Shown: piece after piece, positions 7,631 through 47,545 of the stretch
How the letters are laid out: every line of letters starts with the position of its first letter
Position numbering within the stretch: the stretch's first letter is position 1
NCBI GenBank assembly: GCA_963971425.1
Contig: OZ020517.1
Location: 13,766,501 to 13,830,500 of the forward strand
Source: Bryoerythrophyllum caledonicum
Lineage: Eukaryota; Streptophyta; Bryopsida; Pottiales; Pottiaceae
Reading direction: 5' to 3'
Length of the DNA: 64,000 bases
Made by a program: the position numbers and the translations under genes
The notes under the pieces: model-generated
What the model was told of the DNA's origin: nothing
Databases searched by the model: none
What the model saw: the letters and a program-made list of their open reading frames with translations, nothing else

Positions 7631-7812
7631 TCAAGCCGAAGCAGCTGCTGCAGAATCGTCCCCACCATCGAGTAACAGAATCAGCCCGCTGGACCCTTTA
7701 TCAAACGACTGGATAACGCTGGCCATATCCTTAGCCTCTCCAGAAATGACAACAGAGTCTTTGTCCGACACGATAAAAACCGGATCAGATTCCTTACGGG
7801 ACAACTCCATAA
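7631..7812 (-). other. Exon 4 of the giant gene: unique C-terminal tail
   Basis: The exon begins after GTGCAG at 7813-7818, a good acceptor, and its first two bases complete a Val codon split by the intron. It then encodes MELSRKESDPVF, IVSDKDSVVISGEAK, and SSGLILLLDGGDDSAAAASA before TGA. The tail is not repetitive and mixes charged and hydrophobic residues, so it could fold or act as a binding peptide. The matching donor is CAG|GTGGGC at 7934-7929. I do not recognise the sequence. Confidence 0.8.
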
Positions 7813-10800
7813 CTGCACGACGAACGAAAGAACAATGTCAAAAAACACACAAATCACAACAAAAAAAAGATCGCAACAAAAACTTTGAACTAAACACCAA
7901 AAACAAACATAAACCACGACTAACTGCCCACCTGATTCACAACTACCAATCACGCTTGTGGCCACACCCACAACAGCAAACTTCTCCTCCAACCCCACGG
8001 GCACCACATCAGCAGCCTTCTCCTCCTCCACCAGAACCTCCAGTGCATTTGCAGCAGCCACCGCAGCCGGCTCCTCAACAACAGGGGCAGCCTCCTCCAC
8101 CGCCACCGGGGCCTCCGCCACCTCTGCAGGTGCAGCCTCCTCAGGGGCCACAAACTCCCGCGTCGCCACCTCCGGAGCAGCCTCCGGCTCAACCACTGCC
8201 GCTGGGGCCTCCTCCACCGGTGCCGGAGTCGCCTCCGCCACCTCAGCCGCCGGGGCCTCCACCACAGGGGCAGCCTCCTCCACCGAGGGGGTGGACTCCT
8301 CCTCCACTGCAGCCGGTGCCTCCTCCGCCACCGGCGCCACCTCAGCAGCCTTCTCCTCCTCCACCGGAGCCTCCGGTGCCTCCGCAGCAGCCGGCTCCTC
8401 AACAACAGGGGCAGCCTCCTCAACCGCCGCCGGGGCCTCCGCCACCTCTGCAGGTGCAGCCTCCTCCAGGGCCACAAACTCCCGCATCGCCACCTCCGGA
8501 GCAGCCTCCGGCTCAACCACTGCCGCTGGGGCCTCCTCCACCGGTGCCGGAGTCGCCTCCGCCACCTCAGCCGCCGGGGCCTCCACCACAGGGGCAGCCT
8601 CCTCCACCGCGGGGGTGGACTCCTCCTCCACTGCAGCCGGTGCCTCCTCCGCCACGGGCGCCACCTCAGCAGCCTTCTCCTCCTCCACCGGAGCCTCCGG
8701 TGCCTCCGCAGCAGCCGGCTCCTCAACAACAGGGGCAGCCTCCTCCACCGCCGCCGGGGCCTCCACCACCTCTGCAGGTGCAGCCTCCTCCGGGGCCACA
8801 AACTCCCGCGTCGCCACCTCCGGCTCAACCACTGCCGCTGGGGCCTCCTCCACCGGTGCCGGAGTCGCCTCCGCCACCTCAGCCGCCGGGGCCTCCACCA
8901 CAGGGGCAGCCTCCTCCACCGCGGGGGTGGACTCCTCCTCCACTGCAGCCGGTGCCTCCTCCGCCACGGGCGCCACCTCAGCAGCCTTCTCCTCCTCCAC
9001 CGGAGCCTCCGGTGCCTCCGCAGCAGCCGGCTCCTCAACAACAGGGGCAGCCTCCTCCACCGCCGCCGGGGCCTCCGCCACCTCTGCAGGTGCAGCCTCC
9101 TCCGGGGCCACAAACTCCCGCGTCGCCACCTCCGGAGCAGCCTCCGGCTCAACCACTGCCGCTGGGGCCTCCTCCACCGGTGCCGGAGTCGCCTCCGCCA
9201 CCTCAGCCGCCGGGGCCTCCACCACAGGGGCAGCCTCCTCCACCGCGGGGGTGGACTCCTCCTCCACTGCAGCCGGTGCCTCCTCCGCCACGGGCGCCAC
9301 CTCAGCAGCCTTCTCCTCCTCCACCGGAGCCTCCGGTGCCTCCGCAGCAGCCGGCTCCTCAACAACAGGGGCAGCCTCCTCCACCGCCACCGGGGCCTCC
9401 GCCACCTCTGCAGGTGCAGCCTCCTCCGGGGCCACAAACTCCCGCATCGCCACCTCCGGAGCAGCCTCCGGCTCAACCACTGCCGCTGGGGCCTCCTCCA
9501 CCGGTGCCGGAGTCGCCTCCGCCACCTCAGCCGCCGGGGCCTCCACCACAGGGGCAGCCTCCTCCACCGCGGGGGTGGACTCCTCCGCCACTGCAGCCGG
9601 TGCCTCCTCCGCCACGGGCGCCACCTCAGCAGCCTTCTCCTCCTCCACCGGAGCCTCCGGTGCCTCCGCAGCAGCCGGCTCCTCAACAACAGGGGCAGCC
9701 TCCTCCACCGCCGCCGGGGCCTCCGCCACCTCTGCAGGTGCAGCCTCCTCCGGGGCCACAAACTCCCGCGTCGCCACCTCCGGCTCAACCACTGCCGCTG
9801 GGGCCTCCTCCACCGGTGCCAGAGTCGCCTCCGCCACCTCAGCCGCCGGGGCCTCCACCACAGGGGCAGCCTCCTCCACCGCGGGGGTGGACTCCTCCTC
9901 CACTGCAGCCGGTGCCTCCTCCGCCACGGGCGCCACCTCAGCAGCCTTCTCCTCCTCCACCGGAGCCTCCGGTGCCTCCGCAGCAGCCGGCTCCTCAACA
10001 ACAGGGGCAGCCTCCTCCACCACCGCCGGGGCCTCCGCCACCTCTGCAGGTGCAGCCTCCTCCGGGGCCACAAACTCCCGCATCGCCACCTCCGGAGCAG
10101 CCTCCGGCTCAACCTCTGCCGCTGGGGCCTCCTCCACCGGTGCCAGAGTCGCCTCCCCTACCTCAGCCGACGGGGCCTCCACCACAGGGGCAGCCTCCTC
10201 CACCGCGGGGGTGGACTCCTCCTCCACTGCAGCCGGTGCCTCCTCCGCCACGGGCGCCACCTCAGCAGCCTTCTCCTCCTCCACCGGAGCCTCCGGTGCC
10301 TCCGCAGCAGCCGGCTCCTCAACAACAGGGGCAGCCTCCTCCACCGCCGCCGGGGCCTCCGCCACCTCTGCAGGTGCAGCCTCCTCCGGGGCCACAAACT
10401 CCCGCGTCGCCACCTCCGGAGCAGCCTCCGGCTCAACCACTGCCGCTGGGGCCTCCTCCACCGGTGCCGGAGTCGCCTCCGCCACCTCAGCCGCCGGGGC
10501 CTCCACCACAGGGGCAGCCTCCTCCACTGCGGGGGTGGACTCCTCCGCCACTGCAGCCGGTGCCTCCTCTGCCACGGGCGCCACCTCAGCAGCCTTCTCC
10601 TCCTCCACCGGAGCCTCCGGTGCCTCCGCAGCAGCCGGCTCCTCAACAACAGGGGCAGCCTCCTCCACCGCCGCCGGGGCCTCCGCCACCTCTGCAGGTG
10701 CAGCCTCCTCCGGGGCCACAAACTCCCGCGTCGCCACCTCCGGAGCAGCCTCCGGCTCAACCACTGCCGCTGGGGCCTCCTCCACCGGTGCCGGAGTCGC

Positions 10801-13800
10801 CTCCGCCACCTCAGCCGCCGGGGCCTCCACCACAGGGGCAGCCTCCTCCACCGCGGGGGTGGACTCCTCCGCCACTGCAGCCGGTGCCTCCTCCGCCACG
10901 GGCGCCACCTCAGCAGCCTTCTCCTCCTCCACCGGAGCCTCCGGTGCCTCCGCAGCAGCTGGCTCCTCAACAACAGGGGCAGCCTCCTCCACCGCCGCCG
11001 GGGCCTCCGCCACCTCTGCAGGTGCAGCCTCCTCCGGGGCCACAAACTCCCGCGTCGCCACCTCCGGAGCAGCCTCCGGCTCAACCACTGCCGCTGGGGC
11101 CTCCTCCACCGGTGCCGAAGTCGCCTCCGCCACCTCAGCCGCCGGGGCCTCCACCACAGGGGCAGCCTCCTCCACCGCGGGGGTGGACTCCTCCTCCACT
11201 GCAGCCGGTGCCTCCTCCGCCACGGGCGCCACCTCAGCAGCCTTCTCCTCCTCCACCGGAGCCTCCGGTGCCTCCGCAGCAGCCGGCTCCTCAACAACAG
11301 GGGCAGCCTCCTCCACCGCCACCGGGGCCTCCGCCACCTCTGCAGGTGCAGCCTCCTCCGGGGCCACAAACTCCCGCGTCGCCACCTCCGGAGCAGCCTC
11401 CGGCTCAACCACTGCCGCTGGGGCCTCCTCCACCGGTGCCGGAGTCGCCTCCGCCACCTCAGCCGCCGGGGCCTCCACCACAGGGGCAGCCTCCTCCACC
11501 GCGGGGGTGGACTCCTCCTCCACTGCAGCCGGTGCCTCCTCCGCCACGGGCGCCACCTCAGCAGCCTTCTCCTCCTCCACCGGAGCCTCCGGTGCCTCCG
11601 CAGCAGCCGGCTCCTCAACAACAGGGGCAGCCTCCTCCACCGCCACCGGGGCCTCCGCCACCTCTGCAGGTGCAGCCTCCTCCGGGGCCACAAACTCCCG
11701 CATCGCCACCTCCGGAGCAGCCTCCGGCTCAACCACTGCCGCTGGGGCCTCCTCCACCGGTGCCGGAGTCGCCTCCGCCACCTCAGCCGCCGGGGCCTCC
11801 ACCACAGGGGCAGCCTCCTCCACCGCGGGGGTGGACTCCTCCGCCACTGCAGCCGGTGCCTCCTCCGCCACGGGCGCCACCTCAGCAGCCTTCTCCTCCT
11901 CCACCGGAGCCTCCGGTGCCTCCGCAGCAGCCGGCTCCTCAACAACAGGGGCAGCCTCCTCCACCGCCGCCGGGGCCTCCGCCACCTCTGCAGGTGCAGC
12001 CTCCTCCGGGGCCACAAACTCCCGCGTCGCCACCTCCGGCTCAACCACTGCCGCTGGGGCCTCCTCCACCGGTGCCAGAGTCGCCTCCGCCACCTCAGCC
12101 GCCGGGGCCTCCACCACAGGGGCAGCCTCCTCCACCGCGGGGGTGGACTCCTCCTCCACTGCAGCCGGTGCCTCCTCCGCCACGGGCGCCACCTCAGCAG
12201 CCTTCTCCTCCTCCACCGGAGCCTCCGGTGCCTCCGCAGCAGCCGGCTCCTCAACAACAGGGGCAGCCTCCTCCAACACCGCCGGGGCCTCCGCCACCTC
12301 TGCAGGTGCAGCCTCCTCCGGGGCCACAAACTCCCGCATCGCCACCTCCGGAGCAGCCTCCGGCTCAACCTCTGCCGCTGGGGCCTCCTCCACCGGTGCC
12401 AGAGTCGCCTCCCCTACCTCAGCCGCCGGGGCCTCCACCACAGGGGCAGCCTCCTCCACCGCGGGGGTGGACTCCTCCTCCACTGCAGCCGGTGCCTCCT
12501 CCGCCACGGGCGCCACCTCAGCAGCCTTCTCCTCCTCCACCGGAGCCTCCGGTGCCTCCGCAGCAGCCGGCTCCTCAACAACAGGGGCAGCCTCCTCCAC
12601 CGCCGCCGGGGCCTCCGCCACCTCTGCAGGTGCAGCCTCCTCCGGGGCCACAAACTCCCGCGTCGCCACCTCCGGAGCAGCCTCCGGCTCAACCACTGCC
12701 GCTGGGGCCTCCTCCACCGGTGCCGGAGTCGCCTCCGCCACCTCAGCCGCCGGGGCCTCCACCACAGGGGCAGCCTCCTCCACTGCGGGGGTGGACTCCT
12801 CCGCCACTGCAGCCGGTGCCTCCTCTGCCACGGGCGCCACCTCAGCAGCCTTCTCCTCCTCCACCGGAGCCTCCGGTGCCTCCGCAGCAGCCGGCTCCTC
12901 AACAACAGGGGCAGCCTCCTCCACCGCCGCCGGGGCCTCCGCCACCTCTGCAGGTGCAGCCTCCTCCGGGGCCACAAACTCCCGCGTCGCCACCTCCGGA
13001 GCAGCCTCCGGCTCAACCACTGCCGCTGGGGCCTCCTCCACCGGTGCCGGAGTCGCCTCCGCCACCTCAGCCGCCGGGGCCTCCACCACAGGGGCAGCCT
13101 CCTCCACCGCGGGGGTGGACTCCTCCGCCACTGCAGCCGGTGCCTCCTCCGCCACGGGCGCCACCTCAGCAGCCTTCTCCTCCTCCACCGGAGCCTCCGG
13201 TGCCTCCGCAGCAGCTGGCTCCTCAACAACAGGGGCAGCCTCCTCCACCGCCGCCGGGGCCTCCGCCACCTCTGCAGGTGCAGCCTCCTCCGGGGCCACA
13301 AACTCCCGCGTCGCCACCTCCGGAGCAGCCTCCGGCTCAACCACTGCCGCTGGGGCCTCCTCCACCGGTGCCGAAGTCGCCTCCGCCACCTCAGCCGCCG
13401 GGGCCTCCACCACAGGGGCAGCCTCCTCCACCGCGGGGGTGGACTCCTCCTCCACTGCAGCCGGTGCCTCCTCCGCCACGGGCGCCACCTCAGCAGCCTT
13501 CTCCTCCTCCACCGGAGCCTCCGGTGCCTCCGCAGCAGCCGGCTCCTCAACAACAGGGGCAGCCTCCTCCACCGCCACCGGGGCCTCCGCCACCTCTGCA
13601 GGTGCAGCCTCCTCCGGGGCCACAAACTCCCGCGTCGCCACCTCCGGCTCAACCACTGCCGCTGGGGCCTCCCCCACCGGTGCCGGAGTCACCTCCGCCA
13701 CCTCAGCCGCCACGGCCTCCACCACAGGGGCAGCCTCCTCCACCACGGGGGTGGACTCCTCCGCCACTGCAGCCGGTGCCTCCTCCGCCACGGGCGCCAC

Positions 13801-16800
13801 CTCAGCAGCCTTCTCCTCCTCCACCGGAGCCTCCGGTGCCTCCGCAGCAGCCGACTCCTCAACAACAGGGGCAGCCTCCTCCACCGCCGCCGGGGCCTCC
13901 GCCACCTCTGCAGGTGCAGCCTCCTCCGGGGCCACAAACTCCCGCGTCGCCACCTCCGGAGCAGCCTCCGGCTCAACCACTGCCGCTGGGGCCTCCTCCA
14001 CCGGTGCCGGAGTCGCCTCCGCCACCTCAGCCGCCGGGGCCTCCACCACAGGGGCAGCCTCCTCCACCGCGGGGGTGGACTCCTCCTCCACTGCAGCCGG
14101 TGCCTCCTCCGCCACGGGCGCCACCTCAGCAGCCTTCTCCTCCTCCACCGGAGCCTCCGGTGCCTCCGCAGCAGCCGGCTCCTCAACAACAGGGGCAGCC
14201 TCCTCCACCACCGCCGGGGCCTCCGCCACCTCTGCAGGTGCAGCCTCCTCCGGGGCCACAAACTCCCGCATCGCCACCTCCGGAGCAGCCTCCGGCTCAA
14301 CCTCTGCCGCTGGGGCCTCCTCCACCGGTGCCAGAGTCGCCTCCCCTACCTCAGCCGCCGGGGCCTCCACCACAGGGGCAGCCTCCTCCACCGCGGGGGT
14401 GGACTCCTCCTCCACTGCAGCCGGTGCCTCCTCCGCCACGGGCGCCACCTCAGCAGCCTTCTCCTCCTCCACCGGAGCCTCCGGTGCCTCCGCAGCAGCC
14501 GGCTCCTCAACAACAGGGGCAGCCTCCTCCACCGCCGCCGGGGCCTCCGCCACCTCTGCAGGTGCAGCCTCCTCCGGGGCCACAAACTCCCGCGTCGCCA
14601 CCTCCGGAGCAGCCTCCGGCTCAACCACTGCCGCTGGGGCCTCCTCCACCGGTGCCGGAGTCGCCTCCGCCACCTCAGCCGCCGGGGCCTCCACCACAGG
14701 GGCAGCCTCCTCCACCGCGGGGGTGGACTCCTCCGCCACTGCAGCCGGTGCCTCCTCCGCCACGGGCGCCACCTCAGCAGCCTTCTCCTCCTCCACCGGA
14801 GCCTCCGGTGCCTCCGCAGCAGCCGGCTCCTCAACAACAGGGGCAGCCTCCTCCACCGCCGCCGGGGCCTCCGCCACCTCTGCAGGTGCAGCCTCCTCCG
14901 GGGCCACAAACTCCCGCGTCGCCACCTCCGGAGCAGCCTCCGGCTCAACCACTGCCGCTGGGGCCTCCTCCACCGGTGCCGAAGTCGCCTCCGCCACCTC
15001 AGCCGCCGGGGCCTCCACCACAGGGGCAGCCTCCTCCACCGCGGGGGTGGACTCCTCCTCCACTGCAGCCGGTGCCTCCTCCGCCACGGGCGCCACCTCA
15101 GCAGCCTTCTCCTCCTCCACCGGAGCCTCCGGTGCCTCCGCAGCAGCCGGCTCCTCAACAACAGGGGCAGCCTCCTCCACCGCCACCGGGGCCTCCGCCA
15201 CCTCTGCAGGTGCAGCCTCCTCCGGGGCCACAAACTCCCGCGTCGCCACCTCCGGCTCAACCACTGCCGCTGGGGCCTCCTCCACCGGTGCCGGAGTCAC
15301 CTCGGCCACCTCAGCCGCCGGGGCCTCCACCACAGGGGCAGCCTCCTCCACCACGGGGGTGGACTCCTCCGCCACTGCAGCCGGTGCCTCCTCCGCCACG
15401 GGCGCCACCTCAGCAGCCTTCTCCTCCTCCACCGGAGCCTCCGGTGCCTCCGCAGCAGCCGACTCCTCAACAACAGGGGCAGCCTCCTCCACCGCCGCCG
15501 GGGCCTCCGCCACCTCTGCAGGTGCAGCCTCCTCCGGGGCCACAAACTCCCGCGTCGCCACATCCGGAGCAGCCTCCGGCTCAACCACTGCCGCTGGGGC
15601 CTCCTCCACCGGTGCCGGAGTCGCCTCCGCCACCTCAGCCGCCGGGGCCTCCACCACAGGGGCAGCCTCCTCCACCGCGGGGGTGGACTCCTCCTCCACT
15701 GCAGCCGGTGCCTCCACCGCCACGGGCGCCACCTCAGCAGCCTTCTCCTCCTCCACCGGAGCCTCCGGTGCCTCCGCAGCAGCCGGCTCCTCAACAACAG
15801 GGGCAGCCTCCTCCACCGCCACCGGGGCCTCCGCCACCTCTGCAGGTGCAGCCTCCTCCGGGGCCACAAACTCCCGCGTCGCCACCTCCGGCTCAACCAC
15901 TGCCGCTGGGGCCTCCTCCACCGGTGCCGGAGTCGCCTCCGCCACCTCAGCCGCCGGGGCCTCCACCACAGGGGCAGCCTCCTCCACCACGGGGGTGGAC
16001 TCCTCCGCCACTGCAGCCGGTGCCTCCTCCGCCACGGGCGCCACCTCAGCAGCCTTCTCCTCCTCCACCGGAGCCTCCGGTGCCTCCGCAGCAGCCGGCT
16101 CCTCAACAACAGGGGCAGCCTCCTCCACCGCCGCCGGGGCCTCCGCCACCTCTGCAGGTGTAGCCTCCTCCGGGGCCACAAACTCCCGCGTCGCCACCTC
16201 CGGAGCAGCCTCCGGCTCAACCACTGCCGCTGGGGCCTCCTCCACCGGAGCCGAAGTCGCCTCCGCCACCTCAGCCGCTGGGGCCTCCACCACAGGGGCA
16301 GCCTCCTCCACCGCGGGGGTGGACTCCTCCTCCACTGCAGCCGGTGCCTCCTCCGCGACCGGCGCCACCTCAGCAGCCTTCTCCTCCTCCACCGGAGCCT
16401 CCGGTGCCTCCGCAGCAGCCGGCTCCTCAACAACAGGGGCAGCCTCCTCCACCGCCGCCGGGGCCTCCGCCACCTCTGCAGGTGCAGCCTCCTCCGGGGC
16501 CACAAACTCCCGCGTCGCCACCTCCGGAGCAGCCTCCGGCTCAACCACTGCCGCTGGGGCCTCCTCCACCGGAGCCGAAGTCGCCTCCGCCACCTCAGCC
16601 GCTGGGGCCTCCACCACAGGGGCAGCCTCCTCCACCGCGGGGGTGGACTCCTCCGCCACTGCAGCCGGTGCCTCCTCCGCCACGGGCGCCACCTCAGCAG
16701 CCTTCTCCTCCTCCACCGGAGCCTCCGGTGCCTCCGCAGCAGCCGGCTCCTCAACAACAGGGGCAGCCTCCTCCACCGCCGCCGGGGCCTCCGCCACCTC

Positions 16801-19800
16801 TGCAGGTGCAGCCTCCTCCGGGGCCACAAACTCCCGCGTCGCCACCTCCGGAGCAGCCTCCGGCTCAACCACTGCCGCTGGGGCCTCCTCCACCGGTGCC
16901 GGAGTCGCCTCCGCCACCTCAGCCGCCGGGGCCTCCACCACAGGGGCAGCCTCCTCCACCGCGGGGGTGGACTCCTCCTCCACTGCAGCCGGTGCCTCCT
17001 CCGCCACCGGCGCCACCTCAGCAGCCTTCTCCTCCTCCACCGGAGCCTCCGGTGCCTCCGCAGAAGCCGGCTCCTCAACAACAGGGGCAGCCTCCTCAAC
17101 CGTCGCCGGGGCCTCCGCCACCTCTGCAGGTGCAGCCTCCTCCGGGGCCACAAACTCCCGCGTCGCCACCTCCGGCTCAACCACTGCCGCTGGGGCCTCC
17201 TCCACCGGTGCCGGAGTCGCCTCCGCCACCTCAGCCGCCGGGGCCTCCACCACAGGGGCAGCCTCCTCCACCGCGGGGGTGGACTCCTCCTCCACTGCAG
17301 CCGGTGCCTCCTCCGCCACGGGCGCCACCTCAGCAGCCTTCTCCTCCTCCACCGGAGCCTCCGGTGCCTCCGCAGCAGCCGGCTCCTCAACAACAGGGGC
17401 AGCCTCCTCCACCGCCGCCGGGGCCTCCGCCACCTCTGCAGGTGCAGCCTCCTCCGGGGCCACAAACTCCCGCGTCGCCACCTCCGGAGCAGCCTCCGGC
17501 TCAACCACTGCCGCTGGGGCCTCCTCCACCGGTGCCGGAGTCGCCTCCGCCACCTCAGCCGCCGGGGCCTCCACCACAGGGGCAGCCTCCTCCACCGCGG
17601 GGGTGGACTCCTCCGCCACTGCAGCCGGTGCCTCCTCCGCCACGGGCGCCACCTCAGCAGCCTTCTCCTCCTCCACCGGAGCCTCCGGTGCCTCCGCAGC
17701 AGCCGGCTCCTCAACAACAGGGGCAGCCTCCTCCACCGCCGCCGGGGCCTCCATCACCTCTGCAGGTGCAGCCTCCTCCGGGGCCACAAACTCCCGCGTC
17801 GCCACCTCCGGAGCAGCCTCCGGCTCAACCACTGCCGCTGCGGCCTCCTTCACCGGTGCCGAAGTCGCCTCCGCCACCTCAGCCGCCGGGGCCTCCACCA
17901 CAGGGGCAGCCTCCTCCACCGCGGGGGTGGACTCCTCCGCCACTGCAGCCGGTGCCTCCTCCGCCACGGGCGCCACCTCAGCAGCCTTCTCCTCCTCCAC
18001 CGGAGCCTCCGGTGCCTCCGCAGCAGCCGGCTCCTCAACAACAGGGGCAGCCTCCTCCACCGCCGCCGGGGCCTCCGCCACCTCTGCAGGTGCAGCCTCC
18101 TCCGGGGCCACAAACTCCCGCGTCGCCACCTCCGGAGCAGCCTCCGGCTCAACCACTGCCGCTGGGGCCTCCTCCACCGGTGCCGGAGTCGCCTCCGCCA
18201 CCTCAGCCGCCGGGGCCTCCACCACAGGGGCAGCCTCCTCCACCGCGGGGGTGGACTCCTCCTCCACTGCAGCCGGTGCCTCCTCCGCCACGGGCACCAC
18301 CTCAGCAGCCTTCTCCTCCTCCACCGGAGCCTCCGGTGCCTCCGCAGCAGCCGGCTCCTCAACAACAGGGGCAGCCTCCTCCACCGCCGCCGGGGCCTCC
18401 GCCACCTCTGCAGGTGCAGCCTCCTCCGGGGCCACAAACTCCCGCATCGCCACCTCCGGAGCAGCCTCCGGCTCAACAACTGCCGCTGGGGCCTCCTCCA
18501 CCGGTGCCGGAGTCGCCTCCGCCACCTCAGCCGCCGGGGCCTCCACCACAGGGGCAGCCTCCTCCACCGCGGGGGTGGACTCCTCCTCCACTGCAGCCGG
18601 TGCCTCCTCCGCCACGGGCGCCACCTCAGCAGCCTTCTCCTCCTCCACCGGAGCCTCCGGTGCCTCCGCAGCAGCCGGCTCCTCAACAACAGGGGCAGCC
18701 TCCTCCACCGCCGCCGGGGCCTCCGCCACCTCTGCAGGTGCAGCCTCCTCCGGGGCCACAAACTCCCGCGTCGCCACCTCCGGAGCAGCCTCCGGCTCAA
18801 CCACTGCCGCTGGGGCCTCCTCCACCGGTGCCGGAGTCGCCTCCGCAACCTCAGCCGCCGGGGCCTCCACCACAGGGGCAGCCTCCTCCACCGCGGGGGT
18901 GGACTCCTCCTCCACTGCAGCCGGTGCCTCCTCCGCCACGGGCGCCACCTCAGCAGCCTTCTCCTCCTCCACCGGAGCCTCCGGTGCCTCCGCAGCAGCC
19001 GGCTCCTCAACAACAGGGGCAGCCTCCTCCACCGCCGCCGGGGCCTCCGCCACCTCTGCAGGTGCAGCCTCCTCCGGGGCCACAAACTCCCGCGTCGCCA
19101 CCTCCGGAGCAGCCTCCGGCTCAACCACTGCCGCTGGGGCCTCCTCCACCGGTGCCGGAGTCGCCTCCGCCACCTCAGCCGCCGGGGCCTCCACCACAGG
19201 GGCAGCCTCCTCCACCGCGGGGGTGGACTCCTCCGCCACTGCAGCCGGTGCCTCCTCCGCCACGGGCGCCACCTCAGCAGCCTTCTCCTCCTCCACCGGA
19301 GCCTCCGGTGCCTCCGCAGCAGCCGGCTCCTCAACAACAGGGGCAGCCTCCTCCACCGCCGCCGGGGCCTCCGCCACCTCTGCAGGTGCAGCCTCCTCCG
19401 GGGCCACAAACTCCCGCGTCGCCACCTCCGGAGCAGCCTCCGGCTCAACCACTGCCGCTGGGGCCTCCTCCACCGGTGCCGGAGTCGCCTCCGCCACCTC
19501 AGCCGCCGGGGCCTCCACCACAGGGGCAGCCTCCTCCACCGCGGGGGTGGACTCCTCCTCCACTGCAGCCGGTGCCTCCTCCGCCACGGGCGCCACCTCA
19601 GCAGCCTTCTCCTCCTCCACCGGAGCCTCCGGTGCCTCCGCAGCAGCCGGCTCCTCAACAACAGGGGCAGCCTCCTCCACCGCCGCCGGGGCCTCCGCCA
19701 CCTCTGCAGGTGCAGCCTCCTCCGGGGCCACAAACTCCCGCGTCGCCACCTCCGGAGCAGCCTCCGGCTCAACCACTGCCGCTGGGGCCTCCTCCACCGG

Positions 19801-34800: not shown

Positions 34801-37800
34801 CTCCGCCACCTCTGCAGGTGCAGCCTCCTCCGGGGCCACAAACTCCCGCGTCGCCACCTCCGGAGCAGCCTCCGGCTCAACCACTGCCGCTGGGGCCTCC
34901 TCCACCGGTGCCGGAGTCGCCTCCGCCACCTCAGCCGCCGGGGCCTCCACCACAGGGGCAGCCTCCTCCACCGCGGGGGTGGACTCCTCCGCCACTGCAG
35001 CCGGTGCCTCCTCCGCCACGGGCGCCACCTCAGCAGCCTTCTCCTCCTCCACCGGAGCCTCCGGTGCCTCCGCAGCAGCCGGCTCCTCAACAACAGGGGC
35101 AGCCTCCTCCACCGCCGCCGGGGCCTCCGCCACCTCTGCAGGTGCAGCCTCCTCCGGGGCCACAAACTCCCGCTTCGCCACCTCCGGAGCAGCCTCCGGC
35201 TCAACCACTGCCGCTGGGGCCTCCTCCACCGGTGCCGGAGTCGCCTCCGCCACCTCAGCCGCCGGGGCCTCCACCACAGGGGCAGCCTCCTCCACCGCGG
35301 GGGTGGACTCCTCCTCCACTGCAGCCGGTGCCTCCTCCGCCACGGGCGCCACCTCAGCAGCCTTCTCCTCCTCCACCGGAGCCTCCGGTGCCTCCGCAGC
35401 AGCCGGCTCCTCAACAACAGGGGCAGCCTCCTCCACCGCCGCCAGAACCACCTCTGCAGGTGCAGCCTCCTCCGGGGCCACGAACTCCCGCGTCGCCACC
35501 TCCGGAGCAGCCTCCGGCTCAACCACTGCCGCTGGGGCCTCCTCCACCGGTGCCGGAGTCGCCTCCGCCACCTCAGCCGCCGGGGCCTCCACCACAGGGG
35601 CAGCCTCCTCCACCGCGGGGGTGGACTCCTCCTCCACTGCAGCCGGTGCCTCCTCCGCCACGGGCGCCACCTCAGCAGCCTTCTCCTCCTCCACCGGAGC
35701 CTCCGGTGCCTCCGCAGCAGCCGGCTCCTCAACAACAGGGGCAGCCTCCTCCACCGCCGCCGGAACCACCTCTGCAGGTGCAGCCTCCTCCGGGGCCACG
35801 AACTCCCGCGTCGCCACCTCCGGAGCAGCCTCCGGCTCAACCACTGCCACTGGGGCCTCCTCCACCGGTGCCGGAGTCGCCTCCGCCACCTCAGCCGCCG
35901 GGGCCTCCACCACAGGGGCAGCCTCCTCCACCGCGGGGGTGGACTCCTCCTCCACTGCAGCCGGTGCCTCCTCCGCCACGGGCACCACCTCAGCAGCCTT
36001 CTCCTCCTCCACCGGAGCCCCCGGTGCCTCCGCAGCAGCCGGCTCCTCAACAACAGGGGCAGCCTCCTCCACCGCCGACGGGGCCTCCACCACCTCTGCA
36101 GGTGCAGCCTCCTCTGGGGCCACAAACTCCCGCGTCGCCACCTCCGGAGCAGCCTCCGGCTCAACCACTGCCGCTGGGGCCTCCTCCACCGGTGCCGGAG
36201 TCGCCTCCGCCACCTCAGCCGCCGGGGCCTCCACCACAGGGGCAGCCTCCTCCACCGCGGGGGTGGACTCCTCCGCCACTGCAGCCGGTGCCTCCTCCGC
36301 CACGGGCGCCACCTCAGCAGCCTTCTCCTCCTCCACCGGAGCCTCCGGTGCCTCCGCAGCAGCCGGCTCCTCAACAACAGGGGCAGCCTCCTCCACCGCC
36401 GCCGGGGCCTCCGCCACCTCTGCAGGTGCAGCCTCCTCCGGGGCCACAAACTCCCGCGTCGCCACCTCCGGAGCAGCCTCCGGCTCAACCACTGCCGCTG
36501 GGGCCTCCTCCACCGGTGCCGGAGTCGCCTCCGCCACCTCAGCCGCCGGGGCCTCCACCACAGGGGCAGCCTCCTCCACCGCGGGGGTGGACTCCTCCGC
36601 CACTGCAGCCGGTGCCTCCTCCGCCACGGGCGCCACCTCAGCAGCCTTCTCCTCCTCCACCGGAGCCTCCGGTGCCTCCGCAGCAGCCGGCTCCTCAACA
36701 ACAGGGGCAGCCTCCTCCACCGCCGCCAGAACCACCTCTGCAGGTGCAGCCTCCTCCGGGGCCACGAACTCCCGCGTCGCCACCTCCGGAGCAGCCTCCG
36801 GCTCAACCACTGCCGCTGGGGCCTCCTCCACCGGTGCCGGAGTCGCCTCCGCCACCTCAGCCGCCGGGGCCTCCACCACAGGGGCAGCCTCCTCCACCGC
36901 GGGGGTGGACTCCTCCTCCACTGCAGCCGGTGCCTCCTCCGCCACGGGCGCCACCTCAGCAGCCTTCTCCTCCTCCACCGGAGCCTCCGGTGCCTCCGCA
37001 GCAGCCGGCTCCTCAACAACAGGGGCAGCCTCCTCCACCGCCGCCGGAACCACCTCTGCAGGTGCAGCCTCCTCCGGGGCCACAAACTCCCGCGTCGCCA
37101 CCTCCGGAGCAGCCTCCGGCTCAACCACTGCCACTGGGGCCTCCTCCACCGGTGCCGGAGTCGCCTCCGCCACCTCAGCCGCCGGGGCCTCCACCACAGG
37201 GGCAGCCTCCTCCACCGCGGGGGTGGACTCCTCCTCCACTGCAGCCGGTGCCTCCTCCGCCACGGGCACCACCTCAGCAGCCTTCTCCTCCTCCACCGGA
37301 GCCCCCGGTGCCTCCGCAGCAGCCGGCTCCTCAACAACAGGGGCAGCCTCCTCCACCGCCGACGGGGCCTCCACCACCTCTGCAGGTGCAGCCTCCTCTG
37401 GGGCCACAAACTCCCGCGTCGCCACCTCCGGAGCAGCCTCCGGCTCAACCACTGCCGCTGGGGCCTCCTCCACCGGTGCCGGAGTCGCCTCCGCCACCTC
37501 AGCCGCCGGGGCCTCCACCACAGGGGCAGCCTCCTCCACCGCGGGGGTGGACTCCTCCGCCACTGCAGCCGGTGCCTCCTCCGCCACTGCAGCCGGTGCC
37601 TCCTCCGCCACGGGCGCCACCTCAGCAGCCTTCTCCTCCTCCACCGGAGCCTCCGGTGCCTCCGCAGCAGCCGGCTCCTCAACAACAGGGGCAGCCTCCT
37701 CCACCGCCGCCGGGGCCTCCGCCACCTCTGCAGGTGCAGCCTCCTCCGGGGCCACAAACTCCCGCGTCGCCACCTCCGGAGCAGCCTCCGGCTCAACCAC

Positions 37801-40800
37801 TGCCGCTGGGGCCTCCTCCACCGGTGCCGGAGTCGCCTCCGCCACCTCAGCCGCCGGGGCCTCCACCACAGGGGCAGCCTCCTCCACCGCGGGGGTGGAC
37901 TCCTCCGCCACTGCAGCCGGTGCCTCCTCCGCCACGGGCGCCACCTCAGCAGCCTTCTCCTCCTCCACCGGAGCCTCCGGTGCCTCCGCAGCAGCCGGCT
38001 CCTCAACAACAGGGGCAGCCTCCTCCACCGCCGCCGGAACCACCTCTGCAGGTGCAGCCTCCTCCGGGGCCACAAACTCCCGCGTCGCCACCTCCGGAGC
38101 AGCCTCCGGCTCAACCACTGCCACTGGGGCCTCCTCCACCGGTGCCGGAGTCGCCTCCGCCACCTCAGCCGCCGGGGCCTCCACCACAGGGGCAGCCTCC
38201 TCCACCGCGGGGGTGGACTCCTCCTCCACTGCAGCCGGTGCCTCCTCCGCCACGGGCACCACCTCAGCAGCCTTCTCCTCCTCCACCGGAGCCCCCGGTG
38301 CCTCCGCAGCAGCCGGCTCCTCAACAACAGGGGCAGCCTCCTCCACCGCCGACGGGGCCTCCACCACCTCTGCAGGTGCAGCCTCCTCTGGGGCCACAAA
38401 CTCCCGCGTCGCCACCTCCGGAGCAGCCTCCGGCTCAACCACTGCCGCTGGGGCCTCCTCCACCGGTGCCGGAGTCGCCTCCGCCACCTCAGCCGCCGGG
38501 GCCTCCACCACAGGGGCAGCCTCCTCCACCGCGGGGGTGGACTCCTCCGCCACTGCAGCCGGTGCCTCCTCCGCCACGGGCGCCACCTCAGCAGCCTTCT
38601 CCTCCTCCACCGGAGCCTCCGGTGCCTCCGCAGCAGCCGGCTCCTCAACAACAGGGGCAGCCTCCTCCACCGCCGCCGGGGCCTCCGCCACCTCTGCAGG
38701 TGCAGCCTCCTCCGGGGCCACAAACTCCCGCGTCGCCACCTCCGGAGCAGCCTCCGGCTCAACCACTGCCGCTGGGGCCTCCTCCACCGGTGCCGGAGTC
38801 GCCTCCGCCACCTCAGCCGCCGGGGCCTCCACCACAGGGGCAGCCTCCTCCACCGCGGGGGTGGACTCCTCCGCCACTGCAGCCGGTGCCTCCTCCGCCA
38901 CGGGCGCCACCTCAGCAGCCTTCTCCTCCTCCACCGGAGCCTCCGGTGCCTCCGCAGCAGCCGGCTCCTCAACAACAGGGGCAGCCTCCTCCACCGCCGC
39001 CGGGGCCTCCGCCACCTCTGCAGGTGCAGCCTCCTCCGGGGCCACAAACTCCCGCTTCGCCACCTCCGGAGCAGCCTCCGGCTCAACCACTGCCGCTGGG
39101 GCCTCCTCCACCGGTGCCGGAGTCGCCTCCGCCACCTCAGCCGCCGGGGCCTCCACCACAGGGGCAGCCTCCTCCACCGCGGGGGTGGACTCCTCCTCCA
39201 CTGCAGCCGGTGCCTCCTCCGCCACGGGCGCCACCTCAGCAGCCTTCTCCTCCTCCACCGGAGCCCCCGGTGCCTCCGCAGCAGCCGGCTCCTCAACAAC
39301 AGGGGCAGCCTCCTCCACCGCCGCCGGGGCCTCCGCCACCTCTGCAGGTGCAGCCTCCTCCGGGGCCACAAACTCCCGCGTCGCCACCTCCGGAGCAGCC
39401 TCCGGCTCAACCACTGCCGCTGGGGCCTCCTCCACCGGTGCCGGAGTCGCCTCCGCCACCTCAGCCGCCGGGGCCTCCACCACAGGGGCAGCCTCCTCCA
39501 CCGCGGGGGTGGACTCCTCCTCCACTGCAGCCGGTGCCTCCTCCGCCACGGGCGCCACCTCAGCAGCCTTCTCCTCCTCCACCGGAGCCCCCGGTGCCTC
39601 CGCAGCAGCCGGCTCCTCAACAACAGGGGCAGCCTCCTCCACCGCCGACGGGGCCTCCACCACCTCTGCAGGTGCAGCCTCCTCTGGGGCCACAAACTCC
39701 CGCGTCGCCACCTCCGGAGCAGCCTCCGGCTCAACCACTGCCGCTGGGGCCTCCTCCACCGGTGCCGGAGTCGCCTCCGCCACCTCAGCCGCCGGGGCCT
39801 CCACCACAGGGGCAGCCTCCTCCACCGCGGGGGTGGACTCCTCCGCCACTGCAGCCGGTGCCTCCTCCGCCACGGGCGCCACCTCAGCAGCCTTCTCCTC
39901 CTCCACCGGAGCCTCCGGTGCCTCCGCAGCAGCCGGCTCCTCAACAACAGGGGCAGCCTCCTCCACCGCCGCCGGGGCCTCCGCCACCTCTGCAGGTGCA
40001 GCCTCCTCCGGGGCCACAAACTCCCGCGTCGCCACCTCCGGAGCAGCCTCCGGCTCAACCACTGCCGCTGGGGCCTCCTCCACCGGTGCCGGAGTCGCCT
40101 CCGCCACCTCAGCCGCCGGGGCCTCCACCACAGGGGCAGCCTCCTCCACCGCGGGGGTGGACTCCTCCGCCACTGCAGCCGGTGCCTCCTCCGCCACGGG
40201 CGCCACCTCAGCAGCCTTCTCCTCCTCCACCGGAGCCTCCGGTGCCTCCGCAGCAGCCGGCTCCTCAACAACAGGGGCAGCCTCCTCCACCGCCGCCGGG
40301 GCCTCCGCCACCTCTGCAGGTGCAGCCTCCTCCGGGGCCACAAACTCCCGCTTCGCCACCTCCGGAGCAGCCTCCGGCTCAACCACTGCCGCTGGGGCCT
40401 CCTCCACCGGTGCCGGAGTCGCCTCCGCCACCTCAGCCGCCGGGGCCTCCACCACAGGGGCAGCCTCCTCCACCGCGGGGGTGGACTCCTCCTCCACTGC
40501 AGCCGGTGCCTCCTCCGCCACGGGCGCCACCTCAGCAGCCTTCTCCTCCTCCACCGGAGCCCCCGGTGCCTCCGCAGCAGCCGGCTCCTCAACAACAGGG
40601 GCAGCCTCCTCCACCGCCGCCGGGGCCTCCGCCACCTCTGCAGGTGCAGCCTCCTCCGGGGCCACAAACTCCCGCGTCGCCACCTCCGGAGCAGCCTCCG
40701 GCTCAACCACTGCCGCTGGGGCCTCCTCCACCGGTGCCGGAGTCGCCTCCGCCACCTCAGCCGCCGGGGCCTCCACCACAGGGGCAGCCTCCTCCACCGC

Positions 40801-43800
40801 GGGGGTGGACTCCTCCTCCACTGCAGCCGGTGCCTCCTCCGCCACGGGCGCCACCTCAGCAGCCTTCTCCTCCTCCACCGGAGCCCCCGGTGCCTCCGCA
40901 GCAGCCGGCTCCTCAACAACAGGGGCAGCCTCCTCCACCGCCGACGGGGCCTCCACCACCTCTGCAGGTGCAGCCTCCTCTGGGGCCACAAACTCCCGCG
41001 TCGCCACCTCCGGAGCAGCCTCCGGCTCAACCACTGCCGCTGGGGCCTCCTCCACCGGTGCCGGAGTCGCCTCCGCCACCTCAGCCGCCGGGGCCTCCAC
41101 CACAGGGGCAGCCTCCTCCACCGCGGGGGTGGACTCCTCCTCCACTGCAGCCGGTGCCTCCTCCGCCACGGGCGCCACCTCAGCAGCCTTCTCCTCCTCC
41201 ACCGGAGCCGCCGGTGCCTCCGCAGCAGCCGGCTCCTCAACAACAGGGGCAGCCTCCTCCACCGCCGCTGGGGCCTCCGCCACCTCTGCAGGTGCAGCCT
41301 CCTCCGGGGCCACAAACTCCCGCGTCGCCACCTCCGGAGCAGCCTCCGGCTCAACCACTGCCGCTGGGGCCTCCTCCACCGGTGCCGGAGTCGCCTCCGC
41401 CACCTCAGCCGCCGGGGCCTCCACCACAGGGGCAGCCTCCTCCACCGCGGGGGTGGACTCCTCCTCCACTGCAGCCGGTGCCTCCTCCGCCACGGGCGCC
41501 ACCTCAGCAGCCTTCTCCTCCTCCACCGGAGCCCCCGGTGCCTCCGCAGCAGCCGGCTCCTCAACAACAGGGGCAGCCTCCTCCACCGCCGCCGGGGCCT
41601 CCGCCACCTCTGCAGGTGCAGCCTCCTCCGGGGCCACAAACTCCCGCGTCGCCACCTCCGGAGCAGCCTCCGGCTCAACCACTGCCGCTGGGGCCTCCTC
41701 CACCGGTGCCGGAGTCGCCTCCGCCACCTCAGCCGCCGGGGCCTCCACCACAGGGGCAGCCTCCTCCACCGCGGGGGTGGACTCCTCCTCCACTGCAGCC
41801 GGTGCCTCCTCCGCCACGGGCGCCACCTCAGCAGCCTTCTCCTCCTCCACCGGAGCCCCCGGTGCCTCCGCAGCAGCCGGCTCCTCAACAACAGGGGCAG
41901 CCTCCTCCACCGCCGCCGGGGCCTCCGCCACCTCTGCAGGTGCAGCCTCCTCCGGGGCCACAAACTCCCGCGTCGCCACCTCCGGAGCAGCCTCCGGCTC
42001 AACCACTGCCGCTGGGGCCTCCTCCACCGGTGCCGGAGTCGCCTCCGCCACCTCAGCCGCCGGGGCCTCCACCACAGGGGCAGCCTCCTCCACCGCGGGG
42101 GTGGACTCCTCCGCCACTGCAGCCGGTGCCTCCTCCGCCACGGGCGCCACCTCAGCAGCCTTCTCCTCCTCCACCGGAGCCTCCGGTGCCTCCGCAGCAG
42201 CCGGCTCCTCAACAACAGGGGCAGCCTCCTCCACCGCCGCCGGAACCACCTCTGCAGGTGCAGCCTCCTCCGGGGCCACAAACTCCCGCGTCGCCACCTC
42301 CGGAGCAGCCTCCGGCTCAACCACTGCCGCTGGGGCCTCCTCCACCGGTGCCGGAGTCGCCTCCGCCACCTCAGCCGCCGGGGCCTCCACCACAGGGGCA
42401 GCCTCCTCCACCGCGGGGGTGGACTCCTCCTCCACTGCAGCCGGTGCCTCCTCCGCCACGGGCGCCACCTCAGCAGCCTTCTCCTCCTCCACCGGAGCCT
42501 CCGGTGCCTCCGCAGCAGCCACCGCAGCCTTCTTCACTTCGTCTTCCGCCACCACAGCCGGCTTGTTGGCCTCCTCCACCACGTGTGAAACTTCAGGTGA
42601 CTTGGTTTCTGATGCAGCTATATCCGGCGTGTCCACCATCTGAGCGGCTGCAGGCTTATTTTGAGGTTCAATTTCAGATGTTGTAATTTGGTTTGCCTGA
42701 GCTTGTTGTTGTTCGGCGTTTGTCTCATCTATGAAATCACGCCAGCTTGTTGTGGCCACCTCTGCAGCTGCAGCCTCCTCCGGGGCCACAGACTCTCGCG
42801 TCTCCACCTCCGTAGCTGCCTCTTGCTCAACCACTGCAGGTGGGGCCTTCTCCAAGGGTGGCGGAGTCGCCTGCGCCACCTCAGCTGTCGGGGCCTCGTT
42901 CACAGGGGCAGCCTCCTCTACTGCTGGGGTGGACTCCTCCGCCACTGCAGCCTGGGCGGCAGCCTTGTCCACCAGGGGCGAAACATCAGCTGGCTTGGTT
43001 TCCGTTGCAGCTATATCCGGCGTGTCCGCCTCCTGAGCGGCTACAGGCTTATTTTGAGGTTCGGTTTCAGATGTTGTGATCGGGTTTGCCTGAGCTTGTT
43101 GTTGTTCGTTGTGAGTCTCATCTATGAAATCACGCCAGCTTGTTGTGGCCACCGCTGCAGGTGCAGCCTCCTCCGTGGCCACAGACTCTCGCGTCTCCAC
43201 CTCCGGAGCAGCCTCTGGCTCAACCACTGCAGCTGGGGCCTCCTCCACCGGTGCCGGAGTCGCCTCGGCCACCTCAGCCGCCGGGGCCTCCACCGCAGGG
43301 GCAGCCTCCTCTACCGCGGGGGTGGACTCCTCTGCCACTGCAGCCTGGGCCGCAGCTTTCTCCACTTCGTCCTTCGCGACCACAGCCTGTGGGTTGGCCT
43401 CCTCCACCACGTGCGAAACTTCAGCTGGCTTGGTTTCCGATGCAGCTATATCCGGCGTGTCCACCTCCTGAGCGGCTACAGGCTTATTTTGAGCTTCGGT
43501 TTCAGATGTTGTGATTTCGTTTGCCTGAGCTTGTTGTTGTTCGTTGTGAGTCTCATCTTTGAAATCACGCCAGCTTGTTGTGGCTGAAGTTTGTGGTGTG
43601 GGTTGCTGCTGTTCTTGTTGGTCATGCAGATTTCGCTCTGTGGTGCTGCTGGCGTTTGGGGTGGCGGTTACTTCTTCAGTTTCGTTGGCTTTTGAGGTGG
43701 GAGGTTCGGGTGAGGCAAGCTGTGATGGTGTAGGTGGGATTTGGATGGTTTGGTTTCCTGTGTCGGCTTGCTTTGACGATAAGGTCTTAGAGGGAGAGGG

Positions 43801-45932
43801 AGATTCGGCTTTAAGAAGCTCTGGCTCTGTTGCTGGGGTTGGCGAGTCAAAATGACTGGCTGCCGCAGATTCTACTACACTCTCGTACTCGTTACTCCGC
43901 GCAGGATCTTCTTCGTCATCTGGAGTAGCAGCATCTTCTTGCGCGTCCGTTCCTAATACTGGTTCATCAACCTTAGCGTCCAGCTCAACCTGCTTCTGTT
44001 CCGGCTGTGGGGCTGGGGTCTCTGATACTCTCACCGCTGAAACAGCCTGTGGAATGCTACTATCAAATCCTGTGCTAACGACGTTAGTGACGGGAACCCC
44101 TTCGACGGGTGATCCTACGGACAGCGGCGCTGACTCCTGTGGCAAGGAACTCTGCTCTACTGCTGGAACCTTTTGCTCTATCGCAGCGGCAGGCGCAGCT
44201 TCTTCCAAGCTGGGCCCCGCAGCTTTCTCGACGTATCCAACTCCTCCCACTTTAGAAGTAGGGACAGGCACATCCTCCCTCGAATCGGATGTTGGTTCTG
44301 ATACGGGTGTTGAAATCATGGTTTCCTCGGCCTCTGAATCCTCATCAGCAACAGAATCCTCCTCTGTGACCACAGACTTCTCCATAACTACAGAAGCCCC
44401 AGGTTCCATCACAGTAACAGCTCCAGTGGCTCCTGTTGTACCTAGAACACCCAGGGCTCCAAGAGCGCCAGCAGCCACAGTCGACGGCGTTTTTGATGCG
44501 GGCTCTGGTACACGCACCAGAAATCAGATACTCTGATGCGAAATTTTCTTATTACTCTTCTAACATAACATTTTCAAAACATGATATCGATAAACTCATC
44601 ACGAGAACTGGAACAACTCTTACCTTGAACTGAAGGCACCTCCGGAGGGGAATCTGGGATACTTGGCTTTGCCACGGAAACCCATTCTGGACTCGAGGCT
44701 TTGGGACGATGTTCTGGGGACACCATCTCCCAGTCATCACCTAATGTTTCCTTGGGTGATACCACTGCTTGAGGACTCGTCACCTTCCCCTCTTCCTTGA
44801 CAGCGACTGGTAGCTCTGCAATTGGGCTACTCGTTACCCGCGCGCTTGATTCGCTGACCTCATCTGCTCTCCGACTTACAATGCTTGGCAACGGCTTCTC
44901 ATCAACACGCGCAGCAGGTGGTGGCAAGCTGCTGCTGCTGGCAAGACTTCGAACTTGGACTGGCGTAGTGCTAGCTGAGGCAGCTGCAATGCTGTGGCGT
45001 TTCCTCAGGCCACCAGCGGAACTAGACCCAGCCAGACTTCCTGACGACGCAACTACAGGTGCCCCTCTCGCTAGGAATTCATCCGCATCGTTGCTGGGAT
45101 TGTAGACCCGGCGCTGTTTAGCACCAACTGGCTCGGGTGAAATTTCGCCCGCCTCGACATACTTGGGAGGCAAAGGCATCCCAAGCGCACGAGCAGGTGA
45201 GGCCCTGTACGACGGCATATCCTCTGAACCGCTGTGGTAGACCGTGTCAGGGCTTCGTGCTCTGCTCGAGGAAGAGTGAGCAGGGCTAGCATTCGCAGTG
45301 CCATAAACACTTCCCATTTCGGAAGTAGAATCACGAGGAAGCCTTCTTCCGGATTCATTCGCAAAACTATCCACATCTTGATCAAAGGTAACATTCGTAT
45401 CAATGCCGTCGTCATCTTTGAATTTGGCAACAGCAGCTGGAGTGGGCTCCGTCTGTGGTATCAAGGACACGAAACACAAACAAATCTTACGACGCTAATT
45501 CTCTGCATTGACTAGAGAATTCCCACTGCCTACAGAAGGAGCAAGTGGGAAGAATGCCAGTTCGTGACAAAATGCAGCAATGACAGATGAACTGGCGTAG
45601 CCATTCAAAAGTAAATACTGATTCAAAAGGTGCATACGTGGGCTACAAATTCATTACTTACGCTGAACGCATTTTCAGGCTAACGAGCCTAGTCATAGCA
45701 GAATTTCAAATATGACTTAGGGAGTGTCAGACAGAAAACGAACCTTGTTGATGAGAGGCACCAGAGCTGAAGGGTCTGACTCGAGTCCGACAGCCTTCTG
45801 CTTGCTCAAATTCGGCTTGGGAGCTGATGTCGAACCCTGAGATTTCTCGAGCCTCTTGTGAGGAAGTCTTGGCGTCCGAGAAGAATGCGCATTCAGCTCC
45901 CGGCTCGCACACTTCCCTCCTCCTTTCCCCAT
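7631..45932 (-). CDS. Giant Ala/Glu/Pro/Val-repeat protein, four exons, predicted 12,590 residues
   Basis: The model joins exon 1 45932-45744 (189 nt), exon 2 45452-44624 (829 nt), exon 3 44504-7932 (36,573 nt) and exon 4 7812-7631 (182 nt). Introns of 291, 119 and 119 bp all begin GT and end AG, and their phases (0, 1, 1) agree, giving 37,773 nt. The start is the first ATG after an in-frame TAA at 45980-45978. The protein begins MGKGGGKC, so Gly2 could be lipidated. Next come a Ser-rich head, three long SWRDF repeats, about 107 units of 104-108 residues, and a 59-residue tail. Glu is GAG throughout the unit I read. There are no stops in exon 3, and length differences between units are multiples of three. 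No known domain was recognised; a disordered, strongly acidic, possibly structural or elastic polymer is an inference. Confidence 0.85.
8060..42520 (-). repeat. Tandem coding array, about 107 units of 312-324 bp
   Basis: The landmark CACAAACTCCCGC recurs from about 8149 to about 42278, giving about 107 units. A full unit is 108 codons; common variants lack 2 codons (AEAP reduced) or 4 codons (AAPE missing), and one has an extra 24 bp (about 37567-37614). By my count a full unit has 38 Ala, 29 Glu, 17 Pro, 17 Val and only seven other residues, including one Arg (TREF) and one Lys (EEEK). Within the unit, shorter subrepeats of about 11-14 residues built on EEAAPxxVEEPAA can be seen. Sequence markers show higher-order blocks of 4, 5, 6 and 7 units, so unequal exchange or conversion has been active recently. 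Confidence 0.97.
42521..43600 (-). repeat. Three long, diverged N-terminal repeats with a SWRDF motif
   Basis: Within exon 3, before the main array in protein order, the motif ATTSWRDF(I/K)DET occurs three times (codons near 43575-43561, 43140-43126 and 42747-42733). The spacing is 435 and 393 bp. Each copy continues with EQQQAQAN, TTSE, QNKP, VDTPDIAA-like blocks and then an acidic A/E/P/V section like the main array. The three copies differ from each other much more than the main units do, so they look older. They may be the ancestral form from which the A/E/P/V unit expanded. Confidence 0.85.
44624..45932 (-). other. Exons 1 and 2 of the giant gene: unique N-terminal head
   Basis: Exon 1 (45932-45744) encodes 63 residues starting MGKGGGKCASREL and ending PLINK, with donor AAG|GTTCGT. 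Exon 2 (45452-44624) starts TEPTPAAVAKFKDDDG after TACCACAG and ends PPEVPSVQ before CAAG|GTAAGA. It is rich in Ser, Ala and Pro, with features such as PARALGMPLPPKY, LRKRHS and DDWEMVSPEH, which look like disordered sequence with possible phosphorylation sites. Exon 3 then resumes at EPASKTP. The MGKGGGKC start resembles lipid-modified N termini (Gly2, Cys8), but this is only a motif-level guess. Confidence 0.8.
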
Positions 45933-47364: not shown

Positions 47365-47545
47365 ACCTTGACCCTTGAAAAACCCTATGTCCTTAATCCT
47401 TCAAAACCTGTACCCTAAACCTTGAAACCCCATATCCTTAATCCCTGAAAACCTATACCCTAATCCTGGAAACCCTATATCCTTGATCCTTAAAAACAAA
47501 TACCCTATACCTTAACACTTAAACCTTAAACCTAAACCTAGGCTG
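47365..47545 (+). repeat. Degenerate telomere-like tract
   Basis: Runs such as CCCTAAACCTTGAAACCCC, ATACCCTAATCCTGGAAACC and CTTAAACCTTAAACCTAAAC resemble decayed plant telomeric CCCTAAA repeats. Units of about 27-30 bp alternate CCTTGA/CCTTAA with ACCCTA. It could be an interstitial telomeric remnant or a simple repeat that resembles one. Confidence 0.5.

What the first reader, a model, noticed from the sequence alone, without database searches (positions are those of the whole stretch)
7631..45932. A predicted 12,590-residue protein with one 36.6-kb coding exon
Four exons on the minus strand join with GT-AG introns and matching phases into one frame of 37,773 nt. Exon 3 would be longer than the largest human coding exons I know of (MUC16 about 22 kb, titin about 17 kb). 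The protein is about 1.2-1.3 MDa, with no stop across about 107 repeat units. I know of no described plant protein of this build, so this is the strongest candidate for something new in the window.
Basis: partly seen in the sequence, partly recalled or inferred. Interest (0 to 1): 0.88.

Follow-up and report, generated by a model that had tools for sequence, protein, structure and literature searches.

The report
Giant acidic repeat protein gene, plant-like
A probable plant gene encodes a huge, acidic, string-like protein made mostly of about 107 near-identical copies of one 108-residue block; genes of this build are known from insects and spiders, but there the products are secreted and this one carries no obvious secretion signal.

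Summary
The gene model is confirmed to the base: four minus-strand exons join into 37,773 nt and 12,590 aa, about 1.25 MDa, pI 4.05, net charge about -3,000. The array's openness is weak evidence: two antisense frames are also stop-free over the 34.1-kb array. The strong evidence lies outside it. Exon 2 and the diverged 5' edge of the array have no stop in the model's frame and 7 to 23 in each of the other five. The array's three indel types are 6, 12 and 24 nt. The unit is an Ala/Glu/Val/Pro chain, grown by in-frame tandem duplication. Exon 4, copy number and expression are unproven, and a strong CpG-decay signature suggests a methylated array. The build is not unprecedented: Chironomus Balbiani ring genes have a repetitive core of about 35 kb and spider AgSp1 has 42,270 bp of coding sequence. 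Those products are secreted; this one has no signal-like N-terminus. Best reading: an intracellular, disordered polyanion working as spacer, spring or brush, docked by its unique head, which holds two acidic W-x-x-V motifs resembling ATG8-binding motifs. No plant proteome could be searched.

The parts
45744..45932 (-). Exon 1: ATG and 63 codons, basic N-terminus without a hydrophobic signal-like stretch
   Evidence: best 19-residue hydropathy mean in residues 1-43 is -1.01
45453..45743 (-). Intron 1, 291 nt, GTTCGT...CACAG, 35.7% T
44624..45452 (-). Exon 2: Ser/Pro-rich head; holds two acidic W-x-x-V motifs (W304 GDDWEMVSP, W320 SPEWVSVAK)
   Evidence: 0 stops in the model frame, 7, 18, 10, 11, 7 in the other five
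44505..44623 (-). Intron 2, 119 nt, GTAAGA...ACCAG, 36.1% T
7932..44504 (-). Exon 3, 36,573 nt: rest of the unique head, diverged edge repeats, 106 anchor-to-anchor units, diverged 3' edge
42496..43581 (-). 5' edge of the array: three diverged copies of a longer, older unit beginning TTSWRDF (435, 393 and about 258 nt to the array start)
   Evidence: in 43800-42496 0 stops in the model frame, 12, 23, 9, 11, 9 in the other five
8368..42495 (-). Homogeneous array: 106 units, mostly 324 nt / 108 aa, 98.5% mean identity to the consensus
7813..7931 (-). Intron 3, 119 nt, GTGGGC...GTGCAG, 53.8% T
   Evidence: if it is not spliced, exon 3 runs on to a stop at 7683 with a hydrophobic tail
7631..7812 (-). 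Exon 4: about 60-residue tail, possible strand-strand-helix-strand element; least certain exon
   Evidence: single-sequence AlphaFold2 model of low confidence, mean pLDDT 63.6; open length not above chance

Best explanation
A protein-coding gene whose third exon grew by repeated in-frame tandem duplication of a 324-nt unit. Shown: one frame through unique head, diverged edge repeats and array; block duplications within the array. Inferred: that it is transcribed, spliced and translated. The product is an acidic Ala/Glu/Val/Pro chain of about 11,400 residues between a Ser/Pro-rich head and a small tail; disorder is inferred from composition and from a fold attempt that gave no structure. Lacking a signal-like N-terminus and any clear membrane span, it should stay in the cytosol or nucleus. 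The chain most likely acts physically, as an entropic spring, spacer or hydrated polyanion brush, in the way proposed for the PEVK part of titin or neurofilament tails (recalled), while the head docks it to something. Docking to ATG8 through the two acidic W-x-x-V motifs is the most specific proposal and the weakest step.
For: Exon 2 and the 5' edge are open only in the model frame (0 stops against 7-18 and 9-23 in the other five). Open runs of exon 2 and exon 3 head reached by 0 of 2000 shuffles. The three indel types in the array are 6, 12 and 24 nt (26, 7 and 1 units) and the edge copies differ by multiples of 3. 0 of 67 distinct variant alleles makes a stop in the coding frame, 2.4 expected (Poisson chance of none about 0.09). 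Unit 34.3% A, 27.8% E, 15.7% P, 15.7% V, net charge -28 per 108 residues; whole protein -3,004. Two-unit model: mean pLDDT 46.8, no secondary structure. No signal-like or membrane stretch: best 19-residue hydropathy mean 1.39. Both W residues of the 647-residue unique head lie in acidic W-x-x-V motifs; 186 of 100,000 shuffles do as well. STBD1 (HEEWEMVPR) and PLEKHM1 (EDEWVNVQY) are listed with such motifs as known receptors or adaptors (PMC5538626, passages).
Against: Amino-acid selection within the array is weak or absent: N/S against expectation 0.83, and second codon positions carry more variant alleles (28) than third (24) or first (15). Edge-copy dN/dS in the model frame (0.78, 0.45, 0.56) is no lower than in sense frame +1 (0.65, 0.51, 0.57, stop codons left out). 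The 3' edge does not discriminate: 0 stops in the model frame and in two antisense frames. In 44504-43801 one antisense frame has only 1 stop. Frame-keeping indels may follow partly from the unit's inner repeats, themselves multiples of 3. CpG decay (23 of 54 possible CpG transitions seen, 11 of 187 elsewhere) suggests methylation, which in plants marks silenced repeats as well as some gene bodies. W-x-x-V motifs are often non-functional: one study found 33 functional among 310 candidates (PMC9907853, passages), and my motif test was chosen after seeing the sequence. No transcript, peptide or relative was available.
Confidence: 0.5

Rival explanations
1. Passenger array: the gene is real and translated, but function lies in head and tail. 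The array is a minisatellite that grows and shrinks nearly neutrally because its unit is a multiple of 3 and free of stops; its length does no work.
For: Near-neutral N/S in the array; unit open in 5 of 6 frames, so growth does no harm; recent block duplications such as a run of four identical units found three times.
Against: If translated, more than 11,000 acidic residues are a large cost. The diverged 5' edge keeps frame and residue classes, which fits selection on composition, but selection on the frame alone would also do this.
Confidence: 0.3
2. The array is not translated: it is spliced out, or the locus is silenced as methylated repeat DNA, and the true product is a short protein or none.
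For: CpG transitions 23 of 54 possible against 11 of 187 for other C>T/G>A, a mark of methylation; [quoted passage not shown] Antisense frames equally open.
Against: Head and diverged edge keep one frame that enters the array. The C>T rate at CHG (4 of 68) and CHH (7 of 119) sites is low, closer to CG-only gene-body methylation than to full silencing; this is an inference.
Confidence: 0.13
3. Assembly artefact in the copy number: the gene is real but the array is much shorter, or longer, than 107 units.
For: Arrays of near-identical 324-nt units are hard to assemble; 57 distinct DNA units among 106, the commonest 16 times. I had no reads.
Against: Unit variants are ordered, with identity falling slowly with distance from 0.977 to 0.969 and no exact repeat block longer than 5 units, which does not look like simple collapse or copying of a read.
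Confidence: 0.07

Closest known systems
Balbiani ring genes BR1, BR2.1, BR2.2, BR6 of Chironomus tentans (PMC4192438, section 9 read)
   Same: About 40 kb, few introns, a coding central part of about 35 kb built of tandem repeats, short unique ends.
   Different: Insect salivary secretory proteins (recalled). Here no signal-like N-terminus, almost no cysteine (0.02%), and an acidic A/E/V/P unit.
Spider aggregate spidroin AgSp1 (PMC6553539, passages)
   Same: 42,270 bp coding, 1,383 kDa predicted; unique ends; repeats that become more degenerate towards both ends.
   Different: Two similarly sized exons, 43 and 38 iterations of two motifs, Gly/Pro/Thr-rich, secreted glue with a Spidroin_N domain; none of these here.
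PEVK segment of titin (recalled)
   Same: Long disordered chain rich in Pro, Glu and Val, acting as an entropic spring.
   Different: Here Lys is 1.3% and Ala 32%; no titin-type domain found.
AHNAK, profilaggrin and MUC16 (recalled)
   Same: Most of the protein encoded by one giant repeat-bearing exon.
   Different: Animal proteins of other composition; no sequence relation tested or found.
ATG8-binding receptors and adaptors such as STBD1 and PLEKHM1 (PMC5538626, passages)
   Same: Acidic W-x-x-V motif in a disordered stretch (HEEWEMVPR; here GDDWEMVSP).
   Different: No shared domain; binding untested; motif alone is often non-functional (PMC9907853, passages).

Membership tests
Giant single-exon tandem-repeat protein genes (a kind of gene, not a homologous family) | One long in-frame tandem array inside a coding exon, flanked by unique coding ends | tested here: met
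   expression not tested
Balbiani ring secretory proteins | Secretory N-terminus | tested here: not met
   Hydropathy only: best 19-residue mean in residues 1-43 is -1.01
Balbiani ring secretory proteins | Cysteine-bearing repeat units (recalled) | tested here: not met
   Unit has no Cys; whole protein 0.02%
Spidroins | Conserved Spidroin N- and C-terminal domains | tested here: not met
   No Pfam family on the head; tail only a sub-threshold KH_PARP14_2 match, E 0.24
Titin and relatives | Immunoglobulin and fibronectin-type domains | tested here: not met
   No Pfam family on the 1,039-residue head; sub-threshold only on tail and two units
ATG8-interacting proteins | Core motif W/F/Y-x-x-L/I/V with acidic flank in a disordered region | tested here: met
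   Two such W motifs at residues 304 and 320; 186 of 100,000 shuffles of the head have two
ATG8-interacting proteins | Binding to ATG8 | not testable with these tools
   No complex prediction or assay available

The most novel reading that the evidence does not exclude
The largest plant protein yet known: a micrometre-scale intracellular polyanion with about 3,000 net negative charges, tethered by ATG8-binding motifs in its head, so that one molecule forms a brush or spring on an autophagic or other membrane, with a length set by array copy number.
Probability: 0.1. Interest if true: 0.85.

Novelty: new variant of a known kind. Interest (0 to 1): 0.55.

Why it matters
If translated, it shows that the giant in-frame array exon, known from animal secretory proteins, also arose in what is probably a plant and for a protein inside the cell. 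It would ask how a cell splices, exports and translates an mRNA of about 38 kb that is 74% G+C over 34 kb, and whether chain length itself is selected. It also gives a clean test of whether such arrays are functional or tolerated passengers.

Tried and rejected
Array openness as proof of coding: rejected, since antisense frames are as open. Selection from N/S among units or edge copies: inconclusive, not better in the model frame than in sense frame +1. Domains: Pfam and NCBIfam gave only sub-threshold matches (KH_PARP14_2 E 0.24 on the tail; DUF4786 E 0.29 on two units; none). Solved structures: tail best hit a designed protein, 7zpw, E 0.002 with no single stretch passing, then uL24m at 0.2; the W-motif peptide matched a designed repeat protein, 7pvp, E 0.0087, again with no single stretch passing; neither is taken as kinship. 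Relatives: exon 2 in prokaryote genomes, 107 pattern matches, 0 confirmed; tail in viral contigs, 19 pattern matches, 0 confirmed. These collections hold no plants by design, so this is not evidence of absence. Rfam at gathering score 0 matches, tRNA scan 0. In one search a script joined exons with junctions one base off and gave stops; corrected. The G+C by codon position printed for the 3' edge started one base out of frame and is not used. A kinship with plant ATI1/ATI2 occurred to me from memory and was not tested.

Full report
Observation. Joining 45932-45744, 45452-44624, 44504-7932 and 7812-7631 on the minus strand gives 37,773 nt and 12,590 codons before one stop. The array has 107 anchor motifs and 106 anchor-to-anchor units.

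What openness does and does not show. The unit is 74% G+C and its consensus is open in 5 of 6 frames; in 2000 dinucleotide shuffles of the unit a given sense frame was open in 9.35%, the mean was 2.9 open frames, and five or more were open in 1.4%. Over the 34,128-nt array the coding frame has 0 stops, but so have two antisense frames; the rest have 1, 7 and 426. So 107 open units are one fact about one unit, copied. The frame is fixed by what lies outside. Exon 2 has 0 stops in the model frame and 7, 18, 10, 11, 7 in the others. The diverged 5' edge, 43800-42496, has 0 against 12, 23, 9, 11, 9. The stretch 44504-43801 has 0 against 11, 16, 10, 1, 11. The 3' edge, 8367-7932, does not discriminate: 0 in the model frame and in two antisense frames (all). 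Open runs of exon 2 and exon 3 head were reached in 0 of 2000 shuffles each; exon 4's in 332 of 2000.

Evolution of the array. Three diverged copies of a longer unit beginning TTSWRDF precede the array, in the same frame and with length differences that are multiples of 3. The homogeneous units have 57 distinct DNA forms among 106, one occurring 16 times; runs of up to 5 units recur; identity falls with distance from 0.977 to 0.969. This is the pattern of unequal exchange. Indels are one 6-nt deletion type in 26 units, one 12-nt deletion type in 7 and one 24-nt insertion. Selection at the residue level is not visible: 45 non-synonymous and 22 synonymous distinct alleles against 46.0 and 18.6 expected, with 0 stops against 2.4. 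Edge-copy dN/dS is 0.78, 0.45 and 0.56, no better than sense frame +1. Composition and frame may be kept; sequence is free.

Methylation. 23 of 54 possible CpG transitions are seen among the units, against 11 of 187 other C>T/G>A sites (CHG 4 of 68, CHH 7 of 119). The array has probably been CG-methylated in the germ line. This can mean gene-body methylation or silencing, and it counts against expression until tested. [quoted passage not shown]

Protein. Mass 1,247 kDa, pI 4.05, 32.2% A, 25.8% E, 15.9% V, 15.1% P, net charge -3,004. No signal-like N-terminus or membrane span by hydropathy. Two units folded without an alignment gave mean pLDDT 46.8 and no secondary structure; the tail gave pLDDT 63.6 with strand-strand-helix-strand. 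Both are single-sequence models and weak. At about 0.36 nm per residue (recalled) the chain would be about 4.5 micrometres long if fully stretched.

Head motifs. The 647-residue unique head has two tryptophans, both in acidic W-x-x-V motifs; 186 of 100,000 shuffles reach two. STBD1 HEEWEMVPR and PLEKHM1 EDEWVNVQY are close in form (PMC5538626, passages). The test was chosen after the fact, and in one study 33 of 310 candidate motifs were functional (PMC9907853, passages).

Known kinds. Balbiani ring genes (PMC4192438, section 9) and AgSp1 (PMC6553539, passages) match the build: giant coding arrays with unique ends and, in AgSp1, degenerate edge repeats. That the Balbiani core lies in one exon is recalled, not read. 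Membership in these families fails on signal peptide, cysteine and domains; the likeness is one of gene build.

Limits. No plant genome or proteome, transcript or read set was at hand. Species is unknown. Function is inferred throughout.

Noticed in passing
window 3619-4647, minus strand: Tc1/mariner-like transposase remnant: HTH_Tnp_Tc3_2 (E 1.2e-12) and DDE_3 (E 6.4e-16) in two open stretches parted by a stop.
   Followed up: partly
window 56250-57302, minus strand: DUF7869 domain, E 9.8e-37, possibly of a mobile element.
   Followed up: partly
window 8368-42495: CpG transitions are strongly enriched among unit variants, 23 of 54 possible against 11 of 187 elsewhere.
   Followed up: yes
window 45961-46540: Three pairs of direct repeats, 29-48 nt, spaced 223-382 nt, in the leader upstream of the ATG: an old duplication of the leader.
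   Followed up: partly
window 47380-47518: Degenerate repeats with CCCTAAA-like words, as in plant telomere repeats.
   Followed up: no
window 61971-62930, plus strand: Three consecutive protein-like open stretches with no Pfam match above cut-off.
   Followed up: partly
window 63636-63959, plus strand: Match to Pfam TDH below its curated cut-off (19.7 against 27 bits, E 0.00067); most likely chance.
   Followed up: no
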